Shown here: positions 15,107 to 43,885 of the stretch, piece by piece
Layout of the letters: every line of letters begins with the position of its first letter
Numbering within the stretch: position 1 is the first letter of the stretch
Source: Sneathiella sp.
Lineage (GTDB): Bacteria > Pseudomonadota > Alphaproteobacteria > Sneathiellales > Sneathiellaceae
DNA length: 44,230 bases
Assembly: GCF_002694385.1 (NCBI RefSeq)
Contig: NZ_NZMB01000003.1
Location: 14,889-59,118, forward strand
Direction of reading: 5' to 3'
Notes under the pieces: generated by a model
What the model was told of the DNA's origin: nothing
Databases searched by the model: none
What the model saw: the letters and a program-made list of their open reading frames with translations, nothing else
Position numbers and translations under genes: made by a program

Positions 15107-16252
15107 ATGTCACCGGTCATTTCATCCGATTTCACGATGGCGCTCCGCCTCGTTCCCTTTTATATCGCGCTGTTTCTGATCGTCGGCTTTCAATTGCCTT
15201 TCTGGCCGGTGTGGCTGGCGCATAAGGGCCTCAGGCCGGAGGAGATCGGCATCGTGCTGTCCGCGCCGATCTGGGCGAAAATATTCGTGACCCCCGCCAT
15301 GACCGCCATTGCCGATTATGTCGGCCGCCGCCGCGCGCCGCTGGTGGTGATGTCGGCGCTCTGCCTTGGCCTGTTCCAGCTTTATTTTCTGGTCGGCGGC
15401 TTCTGGCAGATTTTCTTTCTTGCCCTTACCATCGGGGTGTTCATCACCTCCTTCACGGCGCTTGGTGACAATCTGGTGCTGACTCTCGGTCGGACCTGGA
15501 AGATCGACTATCCCCGCATCCGCCTGTGGGGCTCGATTGCCTTTATCGCCGGGTCCTATCTCGGCGGGGTGGTGATGACGGGACGCTCTCCCGATTTCAT
15601 TCCGGTTTTGCTCGCTGTCGCCTATCTGCTCTTGTTCCTGTGCTGCCTGATGCTGCCGGAAATCCGGGTGGAGCGCAGTGACAAGGGGCGCAAAGGCTTT
15701 CGCCTGCTGCTCGGCAACCGTTCTTTCGTGGTGTTCCTGATTGCCAGCGGCCTTATTCAGGGCAGCCACGCCGTGCTTTACAGCTCCGGCACCCTGCACT
15801 GGCAGCAGCAGGGCCTCAGCGATCAGACAATCGGCTTTCTCTGGGCCGAAGGCGTGATTGTCGAGGTGATCCTGTTCGCCTTCTCCCGCCGGGCCTTCGC
15901 GCCGTTCAGCCCGGTCCAGCTTCTGCTGCTGGCCGGTGTCGCGGGCACATTGCGATGGCTCGTCATGAGCTTTACGCCCGGCGTGCCGGTGCTGCTGCTG
16001 ATCCAGACACTGCATGGCGTCACCTTCGCCGCGGCGCATCTTGGCACCATGCGGATGATCAGCGAAACCATTCCGCTGGAATTTTCGGCGCGGGCGCAGG
16101 GGCTGTATACCGCCATCGCCCTTGGTCTCATTATGGGCGGGGAGATGTTCCTCTCCGGCTATCTCTATGATGCCTTCGCGGCGCAGGCTTATTTCTTCAT
16201 GGCGGGGAGTTGCCTGATCGCCCTTTGCCTCTGTCTGCGCATAAAAAGCTAG
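15107..16252 (+). CDS. MFS transporter, HcaT/phenylpropionate permease-like
   Basis: This 381-residue protein has about 12 hydrophobic helices and the N-terminal signature of the PPP/HcaT-type (MFS_1_like) subfamily: FYIALFLIVGFQLPFWPVWL and the loop ADYVGRRRAPLV between TM2 and TM3. The central segment RIRLWGSIAFIAGSYLGG is also diagnostic. Substrates in this subfamily include aromatic acids and nucleosides, but the true substrate is open. The start at 15107 is supported by AAAGG seven bases upstream; a second in-frame ATG lies at 15137. It is followed by the CaiB/BaiF gene 94 bp further on the same strand, a possible but not forced operon. Confidence 0.9.
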   Translation: MSPVISSDFTMALRLVPFYIALFLIVGFQLPFWPVWLAHKGLRPEEIGIVLSAPIWAKIFVTPAMTAIADYVGRRRAPLVVMSALCLGLFQLYFLVGGFWQIFFLALTIGVFITSFTALGDNLVLTLGRTWKIDYPRIRLWGSIAFIAGSYLGGVVMTGRSPDFIPVLLAVAYLLLFLCCLMLPEIRVERSDKGRKGFRLLLGNRSFVVFLIASGLIQGSHAVLYSSGTLHWQQQGLSDQTIGFLWAEGVIVEVILFAFSRRAFAPFSPVQLLLLAGVAGTLRWLVMSFTPGVPVLLLIQTLHGVTFAAAHLGTMRMISETIPLEFSARAQGLYTAIALGLIMGGEMFLSGYLYDAFAAQAYFFMAGSCLIALCLCLRIKS

Positions 16253-16345
16253 TATCCGCCCGGTTACTTTATGGGTGACAGCGCAAAGGCCTTCGGTTTA
16301 GATTGGGCGAAATTCTGGGTCTGAAAATTTAAAAAGGAAAAACGA

Positions 16346-17488
16346 ATGGGACCGTTAGCTGGATATAAAATCGTTGAAATGGGCGGCATTGGGCCGGGCC
16401 CGATGTGCGCCATGCTGCTGGCTGATCTGGGGGCGGATATCGTCCGCATCGACCGGCTGGCGGATCCGGGCCTCGGCAGCATGCCGACCTCCCGCTTCAG
16501 CCTGCTGATGCGCGGCCGCCGCTCCGTCTCCATTGATACGAAAACCGAAGCGGGCAAGGAAGCGGTGCTCAGCCTGATCGAAAAGGCCGACGGGCTGATT
16601 GAAGGTTTCCGTCCCGGCGTGATGGAACGTCTCGGCCTCGGTCCGGACGTGGCGCTCGCGCGCAATCCGAAGCTCGTCTATGGCCGCATGACCGGCTGGG
16701 GTCAGGACGGACCCATGGCGCAGGCGGCGGGCCATGACATCAACTATATCGCGCTGTCCGGTGTGCTGCATGCCATCGGCCGCAAGGATGAGGCGCCGGT
16801 GCCGCCGCTCAACCTCGTCGGCGACTTCGGCGGCGGGGCGCTGTATCTCGCGCTCGGTCTCGTCTGCGGCCTGCTGGAAGCGCAGAAATCGGGCAAGGGC
16901 CAGGTGGTCGATGCCGCCATGGTCGATGGCGCGGCGTCGCTGATGACCATGTTCTTCGGCCTGATGGCCGCCGGTCACTGGAAGGATGAGCGCGGCGTCA
17001 ACCTGCTCGACGGCGGCACCCATTATTATGATGTCTATGAGACGAAAGACGGGAAATATATTTCCCTCGGCTCGATCGAGGCGAAATTCTACAAGCAGCT
17101 GATGGAGCTGACCGGTCTCGACAAGGAAAACCTGCCGCCGCAGCTTGATCCCAAAAGCTGGCCGATCATCAAGGCGCGCCTGACCGAGGTGTTCAAGACC
17201 AAGACCCGAGACGAGTGGGACGACATCATGCTGACCACCGATGTCTGCTATGCGCCCGTCCTCTCCATCATGGAGGCGACAAAGCATCCGCATAACACCC
17301 ACCGCAAGACCTTCGTTGAATATGACGGGGTGGTGCAGCCGGCGCCGGCGCCGCGCTTCAGCCGCACGGAAGCAACCATCCAGCGGCCGCCCTGCCTGCC
17401 CGGAGAGCATACGCGCGAAGCCATGCGGGACTGGGGCATTACGGAAGACACCATTGACGGGCTGATCAATCAGGGCGTTATCAAGTAA
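16346..17488 (+). CDS. CaiB/BaiF family CoA transferase, alpha-methylacyl-CoA racemase-like
   Basis: The 380-residue protein belongs to the family III CoA transferases; the best fit is alpha-methylacyl-CoA racemase, which inverts 2-methylacyl-CoA thioesters in branched-chain lipid breakdown. Seen: the start GPLAGYKIVEMGGIGPGPMCAMLLADLGADIV typical of AMACR, ARNPKLVYGRMTGWGQDGP, then GHDINYIALSG containing the His-Asp pair matching the racemase catalytic His, and NLVGDFGGG containing the matching Asp. An AAGGA lies nine bases upstream of the ATG at 16346. The enoyl-CoA hydratase downstream is 7 kb away, so a joint pathway is not shown. Confidence 0.9.
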   Translation: MGPLAGYKIVEMGGIGPGPMCAMLLADLGADIVRIDRLADPGLGSMPTSRFSLLMRGRRSVSIDTKTEAGKEAVLSLIEKADGLIEGFRPGVMERLGLGPDVALARNPKLVYGRMTGWGQDGPMAQAAGHDINYIALSGVLHAIGRKDEAPVPPLNLVGDFGGGALYLALGLVCGLLEAQKSGKGQVVDAAMVDGAASLMTMFFGLMAAGHWKDERGVNLLDGGTHYYDVYETKDGKYISLGSIEAKFYKQLMELTGLDKENLPPQLDPKSWPIIKARLTEVFKTKTRDEWDDIMLTTDVCYAPVLSIMEATKHPHNTHRKTFVEYDGVVQPAPAPRFSRTEATIQRPPCLPGEHTREAMRDWGITEDTIDGLINQGVIK

Positions 17489-17599
17489 GCGTAGTTACAG
17501 GGTTTTTCCCGACAGAACACCCTCTCCGGCGGATCAGAAAACTTGACGCCGGAGAGGATTTCATGAACCTTTCTCTGAGAGTTTGGTAGGAGAGGGGTG

Positions 17600-20500
17600 A
17601 TGTTGCAAAAACATCAAGATCTGGAAGTTCGCGGCGGCGTAGGCTCGCCTGCGGCGAAAAACGGGGCTGTGCCGCAAAAAATGACAGAAAACAAAGGTTT
17701 GTCAGGGGCAGCCAAGCTCTTTGGCGTTGGTGTTTTGTTAACCATAAGCTGGCTGGTGGCCGCTGGCGCCTATGCCTATACAAGAATCGGCTGGCCGGAA
17801 ATCCTGACCATTGCGCCCCTTGACCTGGGAATCCTGCTGCTGGGGGCCTTTGCCCCGCTCGCTTTTTTATGGTTACTTCTGGGGTATTTTTATCGCGGCC
17901 ATGAAGCGCGGCTGAAAGGTCATGCGCTCGATCAACTCATGGCCAATCTTGGCTATCCAAGCGCCGAGGCGGAAGCCCGCGTCGCCCGCCTGACCGAGGC
18001 GCTGGAGCGGCATTCGCAAAAGGTGCAGGCGGAAACGGACAAGGCGGCAGAGCGTATTGAAGCGGCGTCGGGCGCGCTTGAAAAACAGGGCAGTTCGGCC
18101 CGCTCCGCCACCGACGGGCTGCTCAAAACCTCCGACCGGATCAAGGGCGAACTGGAGACGCGTGAATCGCATCTTCGCGATCTGATCGACCGGATCAATG
18201 AACAGGGCGTGCGGCTGAATGACGCCATCAAGCTGCAATCGGACGGCCTTGAAACCGCAGCGGGCGATGCGGAACGCCGCAGCGTTGCGGTGCAGGCAGC
18301 CCTGACCGCGCAGATCAGTACCCTGGAAAAGGCGGTCGCTGCGGCGGATGCGAAATCACAGGAAATCACCCGCCTGCTGGCGGAGACCAGCGAGAAAATC
18401 TTCACCAGCGCCAGTGAAACCCTGACCAGAACAACAGAGACGAAAGACGCGCTCGGCGCCGAGATCATCTCCCTTGAAGCGGCGGCGGACAAACTGCAGG
18501 CGAAGCTCGATGAAGGCGCCGCGAAACTTGGCGAACGGGGACAGGAGATTGAGGAAATCTCCCGCACCTCCTCCGGCGAGCTGTCGAAAACCGCCGATAT
18601 GCTGCTGCAAAGCACAACCGACCTCAGCATTGCGAGCGATGAGGGCATCACGCGGCTGAATGCGCTGCGCAATACACTGGCCAGCAGCATGGCCGAGGTG
18701 GACCGCGCCCTCGAACAGCTTGAGAGCCGCGAAGGCGGGCTGTTGCAGGTCGCTCGCGATACCGAGACTGGCGCGCGCGAATCCGCCGAGAAGCTGCATC
18801 AGAATTCGCAGGAGCTGGCCGTCAGAGCAAGTGAGATGGCAGAGCAGATGCTGCTCTCCAGCATGAAGCTGAAGGACGAAACGCTGGTGCTGGATGAGGT
18901 GCTGAAAACCACCGGGGTCAGCCTTGGCGCCATTGACCGGAGCCTGCGCGAGGGTCAGGCGCTGCTCGATGAAGCGGGCGAGAAATCCCTGCGCAATGCC
19001 GATCAGCTTGGCGAGAAGCTGGCGAGCCATGCGGCAACCCTGAACGAGGCGTCGGAAACCACAGGCGCGCGCACGACGCTAATCCAGGAGCAGCTGCGCA
19101 ACCAGATTGCGGTCTTCGAGCAGGCATCGCAGCAGATTCTTGAGATGTCGCGGGAAATCAGCGAACGGCTGGAACAGGATCTCGACCTGCTGAGCCGGAC
19201 GAGCGTTGAGACCAACAGCCGGATCACGGAAGTCGGCGGCGGATTGCAGCGTCAGGTTGAAGGGTTGAAGGATATTTCGGACGCCATCACCAGCCGGATG
19301 CGCGAAGCGGGCGAGGAGTTGCGCAAGGAAGGCTCCGATATGGAGGTCAGCGCCGACAAGATGTCGCGCACGCTTGTCTCCGCCAGCGAATCCCTCGCCA
19401 AGCAGCAGAAGGAGCTGGGCGCCAGCGCCGATCATTCCAAGGGCAAGCTCGCTGCCGCGATCGAGGAAACCATCCGTTATCATCAGGATTTCATGGCCAC
19501 GGCCGAACGGGCGACATTGCAGGCCCGCCAGTCCGGGGAAGCGGCCCATTCGCAAACGGCGGAACTTGCCAAAACGGCCGAGCGGGCCTCCGCCGAGCTG
19601 CGCGCCATGGGCGATCAGGCCTCAACCCATATCGAGGAGCTGAACAAGGCCGCGGCGCGGGCGGAAAGCCAGGGCAGCCGCCTCGCCGAGGTGACGCGTT
19701 CCTCCCTCTCGCATATCAGCGAGGCGAGCGGCTCCGCCAAGGTGCATATGGAGGAACTGGCCGATATCTCCGTCCGGGCAAAGAACCACGCCGAAGCCAT
19801 GGAGGAAATTCTCCAGCAGGAAACCCAGGCCCTCGCCGATATCGCGCAGCAATTGACCGAACAGGTGGAAACGGTCGAGAAAACCCTGTCGGAGCGGTCC
19901 TATATGCTCGACAATTCGGTCGAGCAGGCATCGGAGGCGACAGACCGTTTCCATCGCCGTTCCGTGGAGCTGGCCAAGGCCAGCGAACTGATGATCAAGG
20001 GCATCCAGTATGCCGACCGGGCGCTCGCCAAGCACAAGCTGGAAATCGACGAGGCGCGCAAGCATATCCATGACGATCTGGACCGCGTGACCTCCAAGAT
20101 CTCCGAGGCCAGCCAGCAGGTGAAATCAGCGGGCTCGAATGCGTCCGAGCTGTTCCACGGCCAGGCGGAGGATCTGATCCGCTTTACCGCCAAGGCGAAT
20201 GAGAGCGCCCGCCTGCTGGGCGAGCAGTTTGAAAGCCAGCAGCAGCGCCTGACCCTGTCCATCCGGCAGGTGGAAGAGAAGCTGAGCCAGTCCGCGGGAT
20301 TGCTGAAGAACGAAAGCGAAGCCTTCAAGAAAGCCGCCGAAAAAGCGGCGGAGGATGCCAGCAACTCCGGCCAGCGCATTGAAAAGCAGATGATGAGCCT
20401 GACGACGGCGGCGGCGAAGGCGAAGCTGGAAGCCGACCGGCTGGCCGACAAGAAGAGCCGCGTGCGTAACGAGCAGTTCATGAAATCGACCGCCTTCATT

Positions 20501-36391: not shown

Positions 36392-38620
36392 CTATTTCTC
36401 GCTGGCCCGATAAACGCCGTCCCAGCCGTCGGACGGCGGGGTCTCCTGAAAGGCCCGGATGCGCATCCGGAACAGGGCGGCGTAACGGGAAAACCGGTCG
36501 TTCATTGCCTCGATCCCATCGAGCCGGGTCAGCGCCGCCTGCCAGTTGCGGGCGAGATACAGCTCAAGGAAGGCTTCCATTTCGGCTCTTGCTTCCCTGA
36601 AATCCTGTCGCGTGGCATATTCCTCATTGCCGAACAGGCCGTAGATGGTCACGGCCTCCTCCTTGCCTTTCACGGTGATCAGGTCAAGCTTGATGAGGGC
36701 ATAACCCGGGATGGCCCTGGCCGTGCTCTCGCCGATGATGATGCTAACCCCGTATTCCTTGGTCTGCCCTTCGAGGCGGGACGCAAGGTTGACCGGGTCG
36801 CCTAGCACCGAATAGTCAAACCGCTGCTCGGACCCGAGATTGCCGACAATGCAGGCCCCGGTGTTGAGCCCGATCCCGACGCGCAACGCCTTGAAAGGCC
36901 GATCTTCCGCCTCCGCCTCTTCCTTCAGGCGCGCATTCAGGGCGACAAGGCGGAGAATCATCTGCAAGGCGGCATCCGCGGCGTCTTTCGGATGCCGGGC
37001 GTTTTCCAGCGGCGCATTCCAGAAGGCCATGATCGCATCGCCCATATATTTGTCGATGGTGCCATTATGTTTGAGGATTTCATCCGTCATCGGCGTCAGA
37101 AACCGGTTGATCAGATGGGTGAGGCCGCGCGGGTCATGACGATAGCCTTCGGATATCACCGTAAATTCGCGCACATCGCAGAACATGAAGGTCATTTCGC
37201 GCATTTCCCCGCCGAGGACCAGACTGTCCGGGGACGCGGAAAGCCTCTCGACAAGCTCCGGCGAGAGGTAATGGGCAAAGGCATTCCTGATCCGGGTTCG
37301 CTCCTGCTCCGTACCACGGTAATTTGAATAGACCATGGTAATATATACAAGGATTGAGATGAGCAGGGTGTAGCTGACATCAATCAAGGTTGATGTGTAG
37401 ATGAACAGGAAAATGGAAGACCCGATGGCGGTGGCAGAGATAAAGATCAGCAGCCCAAGCGTGGTTCGCGCCCCGACGAGCGGCACCAGCAGGATCAGCA
37501 GCAATCCTGTGGCGAGCGTTCCGATCCATTCGAAAATGGCGATGAAGTCGGGGCGGAACAGGTAACTTTTACTCCAGATATTTTCCAGAAGCTGCACATG
37601 CATCTCGACCCCCGGCAAGTTGGAGGTCAGCGGCGATGCCCGCAAATCTTTCAGCCCCGTTGCCGATGTTCCGACCAGAACCAGCTTGCCGTCAATGCGC
37701 TGTTTATCAACGGCGCCGTTTATGACATCCACAGCGGAAATATAGAGCGACGGATCATATTCGGCATATTTGACGCGGATTCGCCCTCTTGCGTCGGTTG
37801 GGACTAAGGTATCGGCCACCTTGAAGCCGATAATGCCGTTTTCGCCGGACTGGATGATCACATTTCGCCCCGTGGCAACCCGCAGCATGTCAAGGGCCAG
37901 CGAGGGGATAATCTGGTCGCCGACCCGGTTGGCGAGTGGGATGCGGCGGACGATACCGTCAAAATCCTGTTCAAGACTAATCATCCCGCGCCCGGCGGCG
38001 GCTTCATCCAGCGTGGCAATATTGCCGACAAGCGCAGGGTAGCTTCGAAGATAGTTTCGCGGGTGCGGGCCAAGAATAGCGAAGGAGGGGATCCGGTTGA
38101 GCCCGAGATTGTTCGCCCCGACAATATCGGTAATGACGGATATGCCAAGCACGACACGGCTTTTTGCGATGGCGGTGGCAAAGGTGTCATCGAAAGAGGG
38201 CAGGGCCCCCAGCCTCTCCCGGATATCAGGGGGAAGATTGACAATATTCTTTGGCATCTGGTCGGGCGACAGACGGTCTGCTTCGGCAAACAGCATATCG
38301 AATCCGATAACCGCCGCCCCGTTTGCCGTCAAATTGTCAACGAGCTGGGCAAGGAAGGTCCGCGGCCAGGGCCATTGCCCCAGATTGAGCAGGCTTTTCT
38401 CATCAATATCCACCACCACAACCGGGCGCGACGCCTCTGCTTCACGGGGGTGGTAATGCTGATAGATGTCAAAAATCCGGTCCCGGAAGCTGGAAAGGAC
38501 AATGGGATCGGAGATCTGTAGAAAGAGCGCCGTGGCCAGCAGAAGGGATGCCCATATCCGGCTGAGCCCGGCGGAAGGAGACCGGCCGAGCGGGCTTTTT
38601 ATGCGTAAGGATTTGGCCAC
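36392..38620 (-). CDS. CHASE2-domain adenylate/guanylate cyclase
   Basis: This 742-residue membrane protein, starting at a GTG (38618-38620), has a first helix at about 20-37, a periplasmic CHASE2 sensor at about 45-340 (VVVDIDEKSLLNLGQWPWPR, GAAVIGFDMLFAEADR, GVEMHVQLLENI), three membrane helices at about 350-430 and a C-terminal class III cyclase at about 460-640. The catalytic set is present: FCDVREFT and DKYMGDAIMAFWNAP with the two metal-binding Asp, and LGDPVNLASRLEGQTKEYG with the transition-state Asn/Arg pair. A short C-terminal helical extension follows. It probably converts an envelope signal into cAMP or cGMP. It diverges from the giant FecR/RTX gene. Confidence 0.95.
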   Translation of the reverse strand: MAKSLRIKSPLGRSPSAGLSRIWASLLLATALFLQISDPIVLSSFRDRIFDIYQHYHPREAEASRPVVVVDIDEKSLLNLGQWPWPRTFLAQLVDNLTANGAAVIGFDMLFAEADRLSPDQMPKNIVNLPPDIRERLGALPSFDDTFATAIAKSRVVLGISVITDIVGANNLGLNRIPSFAILGPHPRNYLRSYPALVGNIATLDEAAAGRGMISLEQDFDGIVRRIPLANRVGDQIIPSLALDMLRVATGRNVIIQSGENGIIGFKVADTLVPTDARGRIRVKYAEYDPSLYISAVDVINGAVDKQRIDGKLVLVGTSATGLKDLRASPLTSNLPGVEMHVQLLENIWSKSYLFRPDFIAIFEWIGTLATGLLLILLVPLVGARTTLGLLIFISATAIGSSIFLFIYTSTLIDVSYTLLISILVYITMVYSNYRGTEQERTRIRNAFAHYLSPELVERLSASPDSLVLGGEMREMTFMFCDVREFTVISEGYRHDPRGLTHLINRFLTPMTDEILKHNGTIDKYMGDAIMAFWNAPLENARHPKDAADAALQMILRLVALNARLKEEAEAEDRPFKALRVGIGLNTGACIVGNLGSEQRFDYSVLGDPVNLASRLEGQTKEYGVSIIIGESTARAIPGYALIKLDLITVKGKEEAVTIYGLFGNEEYATRQDFREARAEMEAFLELYLARNWQAALTRLDGIEAMNDRFSRYAALFRMRIRAFQETPPSDGWDGVYRASEK

Positions 38621-38897
38621 AGCCCCCCTCGTACTTCCTTATCCGGAATATAAATCAGTAAACGACCGTTTCCACAAATCTTTCCATTAACCATAGTTGC
38701 GAAAAAATTTATGAAATATGTTCGAAATGTGGCATACTCTTCCAATTGAGACCAGTGCGCTTTGTATTTTATGTCTTCGTTTATTCCTTTCGCCGACAGA
38801 AACCAAACGGCGACTTTTTTTGATGTGATTATTTTAAGGGTTGATAATTGCGCTTTTCGCATTGCAATGAATTTCTCCCGCCCAGAGGTTGTTTAAT
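38621..38897. promoter_or_regulatory. Divergent intergenic region of CHASE2 cyclase and FecR/RTX gene
   Basis: This 277-bp AT-rich spacer separates two divergent starts and must hold promoters for both, although I could not place boxes with confidence. An 87-codon open frame on the minus strand (38599-38862) overlaps the cyclase start and lacks supporting features. No CRP-like TGTGA-N6-TCACA site was found. Confidence 0.5.
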
Positions 38898-41800
38898 ATG
38901 AAACAGGAAGGTTTATCTGACCTCGACAGCCGATCCCTTGCCGATTATCAGGCACCCGAGCAGGGATACCTGCGGCTGGGGGATGAAATAAAGCCGCTTG
39001 TTGCGGAGTTTTCCCGCGAGGGGGTTGATCTTCGCCTGACATCGGAAGATGGCGGTTACATTACGGTGCATGATTATTTTGCGTCCGGCCCGGGTGTGGA
39101 CATTCTGACCGCGGGCGGTGCCCGAATCCCGTCGGATCTTGTCAGCAAGCTGTCCGGCCCCGGACCGGTGGCGCAATCGGCGGGTACTCAGTCGGATGCG
39201 GGCGGCCCGATCGGCGAGATCAGTCGGCTTGAAGGAACCGTTACCGTACGTCACGCCGATGGCACCCGTGTGGAGCTGGTTGAAGGGGCGGCGGTTTATC
39301 AGGGCGATGTCATCGAAACAGCAGGCGGATCGTCCTTTACAATTATTTTTGTCGACGATACCCAGTTTTCCATGAATGAGAATGGCCGGGCGGTCCTCGA
39401 TGAGCTGGTTTATAACCCTTCCTCCGGCAGTGGAAAGTTTGGCCTCTCCCTTTTACAGGGGATTTTCTCGCTGGTCAGCGGCCAGATTGCCAAGGACGAG
39501 CCGGAAAATGTGGATGTCCGTACGCCGGTCGGCACCATCGGTATCCGCGGGACAAGCTGGTCCGGCCAGGTCAAGAGCATTGGCGAAGACTCTGTCTTCA
39601 CCCTCTATACCGGCGCTATCGCCGTCAGTAACGAGGCCGGATCGCAGCTTCTCACCTTGCCGAACCAGACGGTGATCGTCACCAGCTATTCCTCCATACC
39701 CGGGCAGCCTTTTGTTTTAAGCGATCAGCAGGCAGTGGACCTCTATGGCGATGTGCTGCGGTTGATCAATCCGGAATGGTTCAGAAATGAGGAAGACTTT
39801 GATCCGGACCGGATAAACCCGGAAGGCGGGCGGCGGTCCCATAATGGCGGCGGCGCGGGGTTCAATCCTTTTGCGGATGGTCAGATTGATGGCGGGCTGA
39901 CTGTCGGTGATCTTTTGAAATCGGCGGATTTGCTGGGAGAAACCGATCTGGGTTTTGAGCGATCTGAAAGCATGCAGGAAATCACCGGTCTTGGCCCTCA
40001 GACCAGCCTTTCGATTGTCTCCGTTACAGATCCGGAAACAGGGAATCTGCAAAGCTTCCAGATTGTTGTCAGCCTTAATGAGCCAACGAATGTTCCGGTG
40101 ACGATAACCTATGATCTGCGCGGCGGATCGGCTTCGGGCGTGGGGGCAGGATTGCCGGGCGATCTTGATTATATCATCGAAGGGGGAAGCGACGGTATTA
40201 TCGTCATTCCGGCCGGATCGACGCAGGCAACTTTCACCGTTTCGATCATAGATGATGATGTGATCGAGAATGTCGAGTTTTTCATCATCGCCCTGACGGG
40301 GGCGCAGAATGCCGACATCAATGTTGCCTCCAGTCAGGCTATGGTTGTGATCACGGATGATGATATCGGCGTTGTCAGCCTGTCGAATGTGACTGTCGGC
40401 GGGGTGCCGGTTGCAAGCGGGGAGGCCATCACGGTTGATGAAAGCGCCGGCGTCCTCTCATTTGAACTTATTCTCGACAAGGCGGTCGCTCCGGGTGTGA
40501 CAGTGGCGGTCAATTATACCATCAGCGGATCGGCAACGGCGGGTGGCGACTATGTGACAGATGGCATACAGACCGTTCTGTTCGAAGGCGGAGAGAGCGG
40601 TCTTGCTCCCGGGGCAACGGCGGTTATCACCATTCCCATTGTGGACGATGACATTGCGGAAGGGACGGAAACCCTGACCCTGACGCTGGTCGGCGGATCG
40701 AGCAATGTCGTTATTGACGAGGGGGGAGAACCCCTGACAATCGTCATTGAGGATAACGATAGCACGCCCATTGAGCTTGGGGAGGCTATGCCGGCCGAGG
40801 TCACGGAATCGGCGACGGGCGACGTCATAGAAGGCGGATCAACTGGGATTGTCGGCGGGGATATTGCGGCGGTTACGTTCGATACGGTGCAGGCGGAGTT
40901 CAGTGAAACCGGGCTGACATCCGGCGGCGTCCCCGTTGTCCTGGATGGCCTCGGCACGAATGCCGTCACGGGTATGGCGAACGGAGCGCCGGTTTTTACC
41001 GTCACGCTCAATCTTGACGGCTCCTATGATTTTGCGCTGCTCGGGCCGATAGATCACCTCGATGCGGCGGGCGCAAATCTGCCGACGATTGCCTTTGATC
41101 TGGCATTTACAGCGACGGGTCCGGGCGGGGATTCCGTCTCTGGCTCGCTGCCTGTCACAATCGCGGACAGTGGCCCAATTGTCAGCGATGTGGCGGCGTC
41201 AATCCTCTATGAAGCGGCTCTGGCTGACGGCACGAATCCCTCTGCGGCCGGGACAGTTGTCAGCGGATCGGTGCCGGTTGACTTCGGCCTCGACGGGGCA
41301 GGCAGTGTGACGCTGGATATTGACAGCTTGCCGACAGTTACATCGGCGGGCGATCCGGTGACCTATACGATTTCAACGCTTGCCGATGGCGTGACACAGC
41401 GCGTCGAGGCCATGGCCGTCCCATCACAAGGCGGCGCGGCGCGGCCCGTCTTCTCGCTCGATTTCGGACCGGAGGCGAATGCAGACGGGTATCAGTATAC
41501 CCTGACGCTGAAAGACGCGCTGGATCATCCGGCACCGGGGGCCGATAGTCTTGATCTTTCCTTCAATTATAATGTTGCCGATGAGGACGGGACCGTCGCC
41601 ACCGGCTCCTTTACAACAACTGTTGTGGATGATGTTCCTGTTGCAGAGCCGGATGCGGTTGAATTGCCGGCCACTTCCCTGCCCGATCACAATCTGCTGT
41701 TCGTTCTGGATGTTTCCGGCTCGATGACGAATTTCGTGCCCGGCGCCGGGCAAACCCGCATTCAGATTTTGCGCACCGCCGTTGATAATATGCTCAGCGA

Positions 41801-43025
41801 ATATGCACCCGTGGCGCGCGATGTGAATATCACCATCATCGCCTTTGCCGCCGGTGCCTCCGTGGTTTTTTCGGGAAGTTCGATTGACGATGCGCGGGCG
41901 TTTGTCATGAATGCCGATAATCTGGTGCCGGAAGGCGCGACAAATTATGCCGCGGCCCTTGCCGATACGGCGACAGGGGCGCAAGGCGTCCTTTCGTCAC
42001 AAATTACCGATCCTGCATTTGAAGGATATAAATCGACCGTCTATTTCATTTCGGATGGCGAACCGAGCTTTGGCCAGGCCGTCCCGACAGAAGATGGCAA
42101 CGCATGGCAGCAATTTGTTGACAGCAATGATATCGAGGTTCTTGCCATCGGCCTTGGCAATGATGTCAGCACCGATGAGCTTGCCAAGGTTGAAAATGCA
42201 GGGGATGAGCCCGTTGTGGCGGCCGATCCGGCGGATCTCGGGGCCGTACTGGAAGGGACGGTTCCTGTGGTGGAGACGGACAATGTGGTGAGCTCCGGTT
42301 CGGTGGATCGTCTCGGCGCCGATGATGGCCAGTTGACCGCACTTGTCTATAACGGTGAGGAATATGATATCCCGCAGAATGGCGATCCGCTTGTGATCGA
42401 GACATTGCTGGGCGGACAGCTTTCCATTGATGCAGAGGGGAATTATACCTATACCGCCCCCGCCGCCACGCAGCCCGGGGATATAGACAGTTTTGAGTAT
42501 ATTCTGACGGACGGCGATAATGATACAAGTGTTACGACGCTGACCTTTACGTTTGTCGAGAATGGGGTGGGCGATGTGGCGGCCTTTGCGGCGTTTGCCC
42601 CGCAATCAAACCTGTTCACCGGACCGGAGGGGGGGCAGACGCTATATGGCACGTCGGGGGATGATTTCCTCTCTGGCGGCGAGGGAAATGATATGCTGTA
42701 CGGAAATGGCGGCAATGATATCCTGAACGGCGGGGAAGGGGCTGATATTTTCTTCTTCACCCCGGCTGATAATGGGCAGACGATCATTGCGGATTTTGAT
42801 ATTGCGGAGGACAGTATCAATCTGGATCAGATATTTGACAGCCTTGGCCTGCTGGCGGAAGAGCGCGGACGCGGCGATGCCTGGGAGCTGTCGGATACGG
42901 GCGGGAAGGCAACGCTGAGTTTTCTCATTGCAGATGGCCCCTCTATTGTCATCGACAATTATCAAAGCCCGGATGTGCGCGCGCTCAGTGATATCGCATC
43001 AAAAATAGTGGTGGATGAGTCCTAG
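38898..43025 (+). CDS. Giant FecR / Calx-beta / VWA / RTX secreted protein (adhesin candidate)
   Basis: I start at the ATG at 38898 (TTG at 38889 is one base from the AGAGG and unlikely), giving 1375 residues without a signal peptide. In order: an N-terminal cap (1-95), a FecR domain at about 105-235 (ISRLEGTVTVRHADGT, GTIGIRGTSWSG), a linker, two Calx-beta domains at about 370-490 and 495-620 (IDDDVIENVEFFI, DDDIAEGTETLTLTL), cadherin/VCBS-like segments, a von Willebrand A domain at about 930-1110 with the MIDAS set DVSGSM, GATNYAAAL and SDGEP, another VCBS-like segment, and C-terminal RTX nonapeptides from about 1250 (GGEGNDMLYGNGGND). Type I secretion is inferred; no T1SS genes are in the window. 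Confidence 0.9.
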   Translation: MKQEGLSDLDSRSLADYQAPEQGYLRLGDEIKPLVAEFSREGVDLRLTSEDGGYITVHDYFASGPGVDILTAGGARIPSDLVSKLSGPGPVAQSAGTQSDAGGPIGEISRLEGTVTVRHADGTRVELVEGAAVYQGDVIETAGGSSFTIIFVDDTQFSMNENGRAVLDELVYNPSSGSGKFGLSLLQGIFSLVSGQIAKDEPENVDVRTPVGTIGIRGTSWSGQVKSIGEDSVFTLYTGAIAVSNEAGSQLLTLPNQTVIVTSYSSIPGQPFVLSDQQAVDLYGDVLRLINPEWFRNEEDFDPDRINPEGGRRSHNGGGAGFNPFADGQIDGGLTVGDLLKSADLLGETDLGFERSESMQEITGLGPQTSLSIVSVTDPETGNLQSFQIVVSLNEPTNVPVTITYDLRGGSASGVGAGLPGDLDYIIEGGSDGIIVIPAGSTQATFTVSIIDDDVIENVEFFIIALTGAQNADINVASSQAMVVITDDDIGVVSLSNVTVGGVPVASGEAITVDESAGVLSFELILDKAVAPGVTVAVNYTISGSATAGGDYVTDGIQTVLFEGGESGLAPGATAVITIPIVDDDIAEGTETLTLTLVGGSSNVVIDEGGEPLTIVIEDNDSTPIELGEAMPAEVTESATGDVIEGGSTGIVGGDIAAVTFDTVQAEFSETGLTSGGVPVVLDGLGTNAVTGMANGAPVFTVTLNLDGSYDFALLGPIDHLDAAGANLPTIAFDLAFTATGPGGDSVSGSLPVTIADSGPIVSDVAASILYEAALADGTNPSAAGTVVSGSVPVDFGLDGAGSVTLDIDSLPTVTSAGDPVTYTISTLADGVTQRVEAMAVPSQGGAARPVFSLDFGPEANADGYQYTLTLKDALDHPAPGADSLDLSFNYNVADEDGTVATGSFTTTVVDDVPVAEPDAVELPATSLPDHNLLFVLDVSGSMTNFVPGAGQTRIQILRTAVDNMLSEYAPVARDVNITIIAFAAGASVVFSGSSIDDARAFVMNADNLVPEGATNYAAALADTATGAQGVLSSQITDPAFEGYKSTVYFISDGEPSFGQAVPTEDGNAWQQFVDSNDIEVLAIGLGNDVSTDELAKVENAGDEPVVAADPADLGAVLEGTVPVVETDNVVSSGSVDRLGADDGQLTALVYNGEEYDIPQNGDPLVIETLLGGQLSIDAEGNYTYTAPAATQPGDIDSFEYILTDGDNDTSVTTLTFTFVENGVGDVAAFAAFAPQSNLFTGPEGGQTLYGTSGDDFLSGGEGNDMLYGNGGNDILNGGEGADIFFFTPADNGQTIIADFDIAEDSINLDQIFDSLGLLAEERGRGDAWELSDTGGKATLSFLIADGPSIVIDNYQSPDVRALSDIASKIVVDES

Positions 43026-43885
43026 CGACCGTCCCGTCGATGTCGGGCCTTGATCTCCCGGATCTTCCGCTCTTCCCAGTCATCTGCGTGGCGGTTTCTG
43101 CTAAAGAGACGCACGGCCTCCATCAGCAGGACAAATCCCATGGCCCCCGCAGGCCAGAGGAACCACCAGTAGTCAGTCGAACTGGCCAGGTTGATAATGA
43201 AAAGGAGCAGGATGATGGCGCCGAAAGTCCCCGCGCGACGATAAAATGCGGCCTGCCGTTTGACATAGGCGCGAATACGGGCGTCTTCTTCCGAAAGGCC
43301 GGTTGCCGGATCCGCAGGGCCTTCTGGCAATGGCATGTGGGCGTTATCCGGGGCGGGCATTTCCGTCAGGGACAGGGAATAGACCGCGACAGGGTCGCTG
43401 ATATTTTTGACTTCTTTGTTGCCTAGGAAACTAAATTTCCTCGGCAGCCGGTTTTTAATCTGTTCAAAGACAGAGCCGGAAATGCAGATGCCCCCGGCAG
43501 GCGCCAGCGCTTCCAGTCGGGCCGCGACATTGACGCCATCGCCGAAAAGATCGTTTCCCTCCACAAGCACATCACCAAGATTGATGCCAATGCGATAGAG
43601 CATGCGCCTCTCCGGCGGAACAGACCGGCTTTCGCGGTTGATGAGATTCTGCACTTCAACCGCGCATTCAACAGCGCGAATAACGCTGGGAAATTCGCAG
43701 ACCAGGCCATCGCCCGCCGTATTGACGAGACGCCCGCCATGCTCACCCACGTGATGCAGAAAATCGGCATGAGTTTTTTTTAGCCGGTCGAGGGTCGTCT
43801 CTTCATCGGCATTCATAAGCCGACTGTACCCTGCGACATCAGCGCAGAGGATGGTTGTCAGCTTTCTGTCTCTATCAGACGGCAT
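43022..43885 (-). CDS. Class III adenylate/guanylate cyclase with C-terminal two-helix membrane domain
   Basis: The catalytic domain is N-terminal (about residues 5-175) in this 287-residue protein. Its motifs are complete: LCADVAGYSRLM and TAGDGLVCEF with the metal-binding Asp pair, LYRIGINLGDVLVEGNDLFGDGVNVAARLEALA with the Asn/Arg transition-state residues. The C-terminal half holds a short linker and a 2TM-type domain: helices GAIILLLFIINLA and FLWPAGAMGFVLLMEAVRLF, ending in charged NRHADDWEERKIREI. The catalytic-domain-first, membrane-last order is inverse to the CHASE2 cyclase. It converges on the FecR/RTX gene; both stops share CTAG at 43022-43025. Confidence 0.93.
   Translation of the reverse strand: MPSDRDRKLTTILCADVAGYSRLMNADEETTLDRLKKTHADFLHHVGEHGGRLVNTAGDGLVCEFPSVIRAVECAVEVQNLINRESRSVPPERRMLYRIGINLGDVLVEGNDLFGDGVNVAARLEALAPAGGICISGSVFEQIKNRLPRKFSFLGNKEVKNISDPVAVYSLSLTEMPAPDNAHMPLPEGPADPATGLSEEDARIRAYVKRQAAFYRRAGTFGAIILLLFIINLASSTDYWWFLWPAGAMGFVLLMEAVRLFSRNRHADDWEERKIREIKARHRRDGR

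What the first reader, a model, noticed from the sequence alone, without database searches (positions are those of the whole stretch)
36392..43885. A giant FecR/VWA/RTX surface protein between two class III nucleotide cyclases
Seen: a 1375-residue protein combining a FecR domain, Calx-beta domains, a MIDAS-complete VWA domain and RTX repeats lies divergent from a CHASE2 cyclase and convergent with a second cyclase. FecR domains usually work in sigma-factor signalling, yet no ECF sigma or FecI-like gene is here. I recall FecR-domain proteins as frequent neighbours of CHASE2 cyclases. Inference: the extracellular protein or its FecR part is tied to CHASE2 sensing, so cAMP or cGMP reports adhesin status or controls its production.
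Basis: partly seen in the sequence, partly recalled or inferred. Interest (0 to 1): 0.72.

Follow-up and report, generated by a model that had tools for sequence, protein, structure and literature searches.

The report
Cyclase paired with giant surface adhesin
A membrane enzyme that makes a cyclic nucleotide signal is genetically paired, in many alphaproteobacteria, with a giant secreted surface protein whose inner end is built like a periplasmic signalling and anchoring module, which suggests that the cell uses the enzyme to sense its own adhesin.

Summary
A 1375-aa FecR/Calx-beta/VWA/RTX protein lies divergent from a CHASE2 cyclase and tail-to-tail with a second cyclase.

FecR ORFs lie near 35 of the 70 best CHASE2 matches in 144 alphaproteobacterial genomes (about 2.9 expected), against 1 of 133 listed cyclases without CHASE2. 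The pairing is uneven: only 1 of 17 CHASE2 cyclases with the strongest catalytic matches has a listed FecR. FecR also pairs with CHASE2 proteins whose output is SpoIIE or a histidine kinase, so the link follows the sensor, not the output.

In 51 of 80 close cyclase loci the partner is a long FecR protein; 41 sit directly upstream on the same strand. Type I secretion genes or a LapG-family (C93) protease gene often share the locus. A same-genus relative has ABC-HlyD-CHASE2 cyclase-TolC-FecR giant in one run.

The modelled FecR region matches the PupR anti-sigma domain and the Marinomonas adhesin anchoring domain.

Best reading: the FecR-like periplasmic end of a type I secreted adhesin is the partner read by CHASE2. 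Binding is inferred. FecR-CHASE2 clustering is in print for Campylobacterota and Burkholderia; the giant-adhesin form appears new.

The parts
36392..38620 (-). CHASE2 class III nucleotide cyclase, 742 aa (GTG start as listed)
   Evidence: model mean pLDDT 85
37499..38530 (-). CHASE2 sensor domain (aa 31-374 of the cyclase), taken to be periplasmic
   Evidence: Pfam CHASE2 1.3e-55; long helices on both sides in the model, read as transmembrane (no separate TM prediction was run)
36647..37201 (-). class III cyclase catalytic domain (aa 474-658)
   Evidence: Guanylate_cyc 4.2e-17; D482, K524, D528, N611, R615 present and invariant in the 39-sequence alignment
38621..38897 (.). divergent intergenic region between the cyclase and the giant gene; no CRP-like TGTGA-N6-TCACA site with up to 2 mismatches
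38898..43025 (+). giant FecR/Calx-beta/T1SS-143/VWA/RTX protein, 1375 aa, no strongly hydrophobic stretch near the N terminus
38964..39719 (+). modelled N-terminal module: small prefix domain, low-confidence linker, FecR-like domain
   Evidence: AlphaFold2 model, mean pLDDT 73
39201..39491 (+). stretch matching the Marinomonas adhesin 'cell surface anchoring domain' (5ix9)
   Evidence: sequence E 3.9e-6; VIA Z 8.8 over 75 of 76 residues
39297..39719 (+). FecR-like domain (PupR / anti-sigma fold)
   Evidence: Pfam FecR 5.7e-9; VIA Z 13.7 to 6ovk_R, 124 residues, rmsd 2.4
40425..40694 (+). Calx-beta domain (best of two stretches)
40884..41246 (+). T1SS-143 repeat (best of two stretches)
   Evidence: TIGR03660 7.1e-35
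41694..42062 (+). VWA domain with MIDAS motifs
42645..42749 (+). RTX calcium-binding repeats near the C terminus
   Evidence: PF00353 7e-10
43022..43885 (-). second class III cyclase with C-terminal 2TM domain, tail to tail with the giant gene; lineage-specific neighbour

Best explanation
The giant protein is a type I secreted, cell-surface adhesin (inferred from RTX and T1SS-143 repeats, no hydrophobic N-terminal signal, and T1SS genes in the locus of several relatives). Its N-terminal end carries a FecR-like module that is last to leave and stays folded on the periplasmic side of the outer-membrane channel, as in retained RTX adhesins (inferred from the fold match). The CHASE2 domain of the cyclase faces the same compartment and reads this module, directly or through a shared partner. 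Presence, absence or engagement of the tethered adhesin thereby sets cyclase activity and cytoplasmic cAMP (cAMP rather than cGMP is inferred from K524). Shown here: the domains, the recurrent FecR-CHASE2 gene pairing, its independence of the output domain and of the adhesin ectodomain, the predicted fold of the FecR region, and correlated divergence. Inferred: contact, retention, and the direction and consequence of signalling.
For: Pairing: 37 of 150 listed CHASE2 matches have a listed FecR within 10 kb. For the best 70, 35 have a FecR ORF nearby (2.9 expected at doubled FecR density): 10 taken from the Pfam list and 25 from DNA read here. All 25 have Pfam FecR support, 23 above the cut-off and 2 just below it. 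Control with full lists: 1 of 133 listed Guanylate_cyc matches not belonging to a listed CHASE2 protein. Output-independent: three fetched CHASE2 proteins without a cyclase domain but with FecR nearby carry SpoIIE (2) or a histidine kinase (1). Close relatives: FecR protein in 51 of 80 loci; 41 same strand with a gap under 700 bp, 5 with ABC+HlyD between, 3 further upstream, 2 divergent. Same-genus relative: ABC-HlyD-CHASE2 cyclase-TolC-FecR/RTX giant contiguous on one strand. Fold: PupR signalling domain Z 13.7, adhesin anchoring domain 5ix9 Z 8.8. Divergence: partial rank correlation FecR-CHASE2 given catalytic domain 0.64 (highest of 999 permutations 0.34), against 0.17 for FecR-catalytic given CHASE2, 39 pairs. 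Among 26 giant pairs: CHASE2 0.80, TM 0.65, catalytic 0.56, tail 0.35.
Against: No interaction was tested; complexes could not be modelled. The pairing is uneven: of 17 CHASE2 cyclases among the 150 strongest Guanylate_cyc matches, 1 has a listed FecR within 10.5 kb, and half of the best 70 CHASE2 places show no FecR (some contigs end early). 8 of 80 close loci hold at least 4 kb upstream of the cyclase and fell in none of the classes FecR, T1SS or cut-off long ORF. In the window genome the T1SS and C93 genes lie on another contig, so retention there is indirect inference. NF033682 (LapA retention module) matches below its cut-off (35.7 against 50). The catalytic domain is more conserved than CHASE2, which can lower its correlation; at equal column numbers the gap narrows to 0.72 against 0.51.
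Confidence: 0.5

Rival explanations
1. Transcriptional wiring: CHASE2 senses something else, and the cyclase sits beside the adhesin because cAMP through a CRP/Clr-type regulator switches on the adhesin (and its protease).
For: CRP-like TGTGA-N6-TCACA with at most 1 mismatch upstream of 26 of 52 FecR giants (51 loci and the window), against 1.5% of 2324 stretches of the same loci. In S. meliloti the FecR gene smc02177 is activated ex planta by cAMP-Clr in a cyaD1D2K-dependent way (PMC5498481, passages). The window genome has 7 cNMP_binding matches, 6 over the cut-off.
Against: Of the 30 loci with a site at up to 2 mismatches, 29 are records titled Bradyrhizobium and 1 is Sneathiella, so there are few independent events. 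The window has no such site. In nodules smc02177 expression was largely independent of clr and of the three cyclases (PMC5498481, passages). It does not explain pairing with SpoIIE and kinase outputs or the tighter FecR-CHASE2 correlation.
Confidence: 0.25
2. Lap-like retention switch: the C93 protease cuts the adhesin near its periplasmic end and the CHASE2 cyclase takes the place of LapD, controlling or reporting cleavage.
For: C93 genes in 39 of 51 FecR loci, 37 divergent within 1.3 kb of the giant gene. Of 38 aligned C93 proteins (including one of the window genome), the presumed catalytic Cys and His are kept in 38 and the Asp in 37 (roles recalled). C93 in 23 of 23 genomes searched. LapD_MoxY_N has no match in 13 of these 23; 10 have matches, 6 over the cut-off, all in 458-521 aa frames, shorter than LapD as recalled.
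Against: No [TAP]AAG motif anywhere in the window protein. C93 was not found in the window locus or in the two Sneathiella loci. FecR-CHASE2 pairs exist with small FecR proteins that are no adhesins. The LapD search rang in none of its 14 control genomes, and a LapD of diverged sequence would be missed.
Confidence: 0.12
3. Ordinary neighbourhood: a mobile adhesin cassette beside a common signalling gene, without a functional link.
For: The ectodomain and the flanking genes vary widely; FecR is rare beside the CHASE2 cyclases with the strongest catalytic matches (1 of 17).
Against: 35 of 70 against 2.9 expected; 1 of 133 for non-CHASE2 cyclases; same orientation and short gaps in 41 of 51.
Confidence: 0.08
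4. Classical FecI-FecR-FecA sigma signalling.
For: Pfam FecR match and PupR-like fold.
Against: No Sigma70_r2 match on the contig; FecR sits inside a 1375-aa RTX protein; no hydrophobic N-terminal segment.
Confidence: 0.02

Closest known systems
Campylobacterota CHASE2 adenylate cyclase cluster (PMC9239204, passages seen)
   Same: CHASE2 adenylate cyclase clustered with a FecR-domain outer membrane protein
   Different: the paper names a phosphodiesterase and a TPR protein in the cluster; here the FecR domain is part of a giant RTX protein, and relatives add T1SS and C93 genes
Burkholderia BiofilmReg operon (PMC5192318, passages seen)
   Same: FecR protein next to a CHASE2 receptor; linked to biofilm
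   Different: LysM-FecR with a CHASE2 histidine kinase and a response regulator, not a cyclase and not an adhesin
S. meliloti clr - cyaD1 - smc02177 - smc02178 (PMC5498481, passages seen)
   Same: CHASE2 cyclase CyaD1 (SMc02176) and a FecR-domain protein with the next locus tag; cAMP-Clr activates the FecR gene ex planta
   Different: separate FecR protein; plant infection control; the paper's tests gave no support for a role of these genes in plant signal perception
LapA/LapG/LapD and Dvh adhesin systems (PMC13090378, passages seen)
   Same: large adhesin with an N-terminal periplasmic retention module; LapG-family protease beside the adhesin gene in many relatives
   Different: no LapG consensus site in the window protein, no LapD_MoxY_N match in its genome; a class III cyclase instead of a c-di-GMP receptor
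PupR/FecR cell-surface signalling domain (PDB 6ovk)
   Same: predicted fold of the FecR region
   Different: no sigma factor gene on the contig; pairing with a TonB receptor not tested

Membership tests
FecR-CHASE2 gene pair | FecR-domain protein gene next to a CHASE2 receptor gene | tested here: met
   the genome's only FecR and only CHASE2 are divergent neighbours
FecR-CHASE2 gene pair | FecR protein exported to the periplasm or outer membrane | tested here: inconclusive
   RTX/T1SS features and no hydrophobic N-terminal stretch; location not shown
T1SS RTX adhesin | RTX repeats, T1SS repeats, no N-terminal signal peptide | tested here: met
   RTX repeats are few
T1SS RTX adhesin | dedicated T1SS in the same locus (common, not obligatory) | tested here: not met
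   none among the seven window genes scanned around it; a C39-ABC, HlyD and TolC-type set is on contig C11; present in the locus in some relatives
T1SS RTX adhesin | adhesion | not testable with these tools
   needs an assay
LapA-type retained adhesin | N-terminal retention module (NF033682) | tested here: inconclusive
   E 8.5e-9 but 35.7 bits against a cut-off of 50; fold match to 5ix9
LapA-type retained adhesin | LapG consensus site [TAP]AAG after the retention domain | tested here: not met
   none in the whole protein
LapA-type retained adhesin | LapD with LapD_MoxY_N | tested here: not met
   no match in the window genome; the search rang in none of its 14 control genomes
Class III adenylate cyclase | two metal Asp, Lys for adenine, transition-state Asn and Arg (roles recalled) | tested here: met
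Class III adenylate cyclase | makes cAMP | not testable with these tools
   needs an assay
FecI-FecR sigma regulation | FecI-like ECF sigma gene adjacent | tested here: not met

The most novel reading that the evidence does not exclude
FecR-fold domains are the periplasmic ligand of a large part of CHASE2 receptors, whatever the output. In this branch the ligand has been built into the anchored end of a giant adhesin, so that the cell measures, through a cyclic nucleotide, whether its adhesin is deployed, engaged or shed: an adhesin-status sensor that runs outside-in, the reverse of LapD.
Probability: 0.27. Interest if true: 0.82.

Novelty: new variant of a known kind. Interest (0 to 1): 0.62.

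Why it matters
The signal for CHASE2 receptors is stated as unknown in the Burkholderia paper (PMC5192318, passage), and no solved chain had its best match in the CHASE2 part of the cyclase by sequence. A strong, output-independent partnership with FecR-fold domains gives a direct candidate ligand that can be tested by binding. If right, it also adds a cyclic-nucleotide route to the control of large retained adhesins, which the Lap/Dvh paper seen here describes through c-di-GMP.

Tried and rejected
Sigma-factor reading of FecR: rejected. Second cyclase as part of the system: rejected as general, 2 of 80 loci, LysR in its place in a same-genus relative. cAMP site in the window: no CRP-like site with up to 2 mismatches; one exact TGTT-N8-AACA overlaps the giant's start codon, was not found in L002 or L003, and is taken as chance. 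LapG consensus site in the window protein: none. A near-invariant Ala-Gln pair in the linker before the FecR domain was considered as a processing motif; a loose pattern found it in 37 of 66 giants, so nothing is claimed. BapA_N (prefix-like domain) was matched below its cut-off in two other giants and was not reported for the window protein. Fold of CHASE2: the 50 Foldseek rows shown for the cyclase model are cyclases; no statement on the CHASE2 fold is possible. The region control for the correlation failed for the full set of 39 (no usable rows) and stands only for 26 giant pairs. Of 24 genome handles given were searched (L078 not held). Paper searches; CHASE2 with RTX gave one unrelated image-analysis paper, CHASE2 with 'type I secretion' and with LapG gave none. 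Papers not named with passages were seen as listings only.
Full report
What is there. The window is part of a 3.6 Mb alphaproteobacterial genome; the nearest named relatives by the cyclase are Sneathiella (76-78% identity in the best segment). The giant gene runs 38898-43025 (+) and codes for 1375 aa with FecR, two Calx-beta stretches, VWA, a bacterial Ig domain and RTX repeats, and T1SS-143 repeats. The VWA MIDAS motifs are present, the RTX repeats are few, and the N terminus has no strongly hydrophobic stretch. It is divergent from a CHASE2 class III cyclase (36392-38620, -) and tail to tail with a second, 2TM cyclase (43022-43885, -). The genome has 11 Guanylate_cyc matches, 10 over the cut-off, but only one CHASE2 and one FecR: these two neighbours.

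Is the pairing chance? In 144 genomes of the class, CHASE2 is in 72 and FecR in 75. Both tables of places are cut at the best 150. From the tables alone, 37 of 150 CHASE2 places have a FecR within 10 kb, in 27 genomes (the window's own FecR was added to the FecR table). For the best 70 CHASE2 places, 60 were read as DNA (about 8 kb on each side where the contig allows, 12 kb on one side for one of them) with a FecR model built here, and 10 were taken from the tables because a FecR was already seen beside them: 35 of 70 have FecR, 29 of 50 genomes, 15 of the FecR frames being 800 aa or longer. The 25 FecR frames found by reading have Pfam FecR support, 23 over the cut-off and 2 just below it (L179 22.9 and L186 23.4 bits against 24). 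The expected number is 2.9 with FecR density doubled and a 20 kb span. Several contigs end early, so 35 is a lower bound.

Control and its limit. Of the 150 strongest Guanylate_cyc places, 133 (49 genomes) are not within 3 kb of a listed CHASE2; 1 of these has a listed FecR within 10.5 kb (full lists; Fisher p 1.4e-10 against 37 of 150). The other 17 belong to listed CHASE2 proteins, and only 1 of them has a listed FecR. So FecR pairing is not a general property of CHASE2 cyclases: those with the strongest catalytic-domain matches mostly lack it, and the pairing must be concentrated in other branches. No tree of CHASE2 was built to show which.

What is paired with what? Of the 60 CHASE2 proteins read, 56 carry the cyclase domain in the same frame (22 with FecR nearby) and 4 do not (3 with FecR nearby). 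The three carry SpoIIE, SpoIIE and a histidine kinase; the fourth (L196, no FecR) has a cyclase-type frame directly next to it and looks like a split gene. On the other side, FecR comes as small proteins (8 of the 11 frames under 700 aa have a 12-residue stretch of mean hydropathy 2.0 or more near the N terminus) and as giants. Across 26 giants Pfam FecR is found in 25, while Big_9 is in 18, HemolysinCabind in 13, VWA_2 in 4 and Calx-beta in 3. The constant elements are therefore the CHASE2 domain and the FecR domain. This points to the periplasmic side as the place of the link (inference).

The branch with giants. Of the 29 without a FecR, 8 have ABC and HlyD directly upstream, 6 have a long ORF that runs off the held DNA, 7 hold under 4 kb upstream, and 8 have at least 4 kb and fell in no class. 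C93 (LapG-family) genes occur in 39 of the 51, 37 of them divergent within 1.3 kb of the giant gene, with the presumed catalytic Cys, His and Asp kept. Pfam confirms ABC, HlyD, TolC-type and C93 genes in sampled loci. In the same-genus genome G141 the order is ABC, HlyD, CHASE2 cyclase, TolC-type, FecR/RTX giant on one strand; in G033 the giant is divergent from the cyclase as in the window. In the window genome a T1SS with C39-ABC, HlyD and TolC-type genes and two C93 matches lies on contig C11. The 2TM cyclase is in 2 of the 80 loci only.

What the FecR part is. By sequence, the only PDB chain matched by the N-terminal region at E up to 5 is 5ix9 (E 3.9e-6), titled 'cell surface anchoring domain'. 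The model of the region (mean pLDDT 73) matches the PupR anti-sigma cell-surface signalling domain (Z 13.7, 124 residues, rmsd 2.4), a putative Parabacteroides anti-sigma factor (Z 12.7 and 12.5) and 5ix9 (Z 8.8, 75 of 76 residues); the next rows are at Z 5.4 and below. It is thus at once FecR-like and anchoring-module-like. That it stays in the periplasm is inferred from these parallels.

Correlated divergence. For 39 dereplicated pairs the rank correlation of distances is 0.76 for FecR-CHASE2 and 0.56 for FecR-catalytic domain. The partial correlation with CHASE2 given the catalytic domain is 0.64 (999 permutations: highest 0.34); the reverse is 0.17. For 26 giant pairs the values are CHASE2 0.80, TM segment 0.65, catalytic domain 0.56, C-terminal tail 0.35. 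With 150 columns drawn from each, CHASE2 gives 0.72 and the catalytic domain 0.51. Rate differences between domains can produce part of this, so it is supportive, not proof.

cAMP and expression. In Bradyrhizobium loci a CRP-like site stands upstream of the giant frame (26 of 52 with at most 1 mismatch; 1.5% of 2324 stretches of the same loci; C93 upstream regions 33 of 44 with at most 2 mismatches, largely the same intergenic DNA). Of 30 loci with up to 2 mismatches, 29 are titled Bradyrhizobium. The window has none. This supports cAMP control of the adhesin in that branch only.

Literature. FecR-CHASE2 clustering is reported for Campylobacterota (PMC9239204, passages) and Burkholderia (PMC5192318, passages). 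S. meliloti CyaD1 (CHASE2) and the FecR protein SMc02177 bear consecutive locus tags; smc02177 is a cAMP-Clr target ex planta but largely clr-independent in nodules (PMC5498481, passages). mtxA is followed by a CHASE2 cyclase gene; FecR is not mentioned there (PMC4439547, passages). Lap/Dvh biology is taken from PMC13090378 (passages). I found no paper on CHASE2 together with RTX adhesins, type I secretion or LapG in the held library.

Verdict. The most likely mechanism is that the CHASE2 domain reads the FecR-like periplasmic end of the adhesin (confidence 0.5). The main alternative is transcriptional wiring by cAMP. The two are not exclusive.

Noticed in passing
L085:14031-16082 (G000 contig C11): A 683-aa frame holds an HlyD-type membrane fusion protein followed by a C93 (LapG-family) domain in one reading frame, an unusual fusion of a T1SS part with the adhesin protease family.
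   Followed up: no
L085:6606-8741 (-) and 16003-18132 (+): The T1SS/C93 cluster of the window genome is flanked by two HD_5 proteins with PAS_4 matches, possible c-di-GMP phosphodiesterases (recalled), so the C93 there may be under c-di-GMP control.
   Followed up: no
L005, L014, L019, L024, L037 and other Bradyrhizobium loci, about 260-330 bp upstream of the FecR giant frame: CRP-like site close to TGTNA-N6-TCACA with conserved half-sites and variable middle in the divergent C93/FecR-giant region.
   Followed up: partly
L158 and L206: CHASE2-SpoIIE proteins with a FecR protein gene nearby.
   Followed up: partly
class sample, CHASE2 cyclases with the strongest Guanylate_cyc matches: Only 1 of 17 has a listed FecR within 10.5 kb, so CHASE2 cyclases seem to fall into pairing and non-pairing groups.
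   Followed up: no
window:34684-35505 (-): 273-aa pentapeptide-repeat protein near the cyclase.
   Followed up: no
window 38640-38760 against L002 and L003: A stretch of the divergent intergenic region looks well kept between the window and two Sneathiella loci, seen by eye in the output; not aligned or assigned to a regulator.
   Followed up: no
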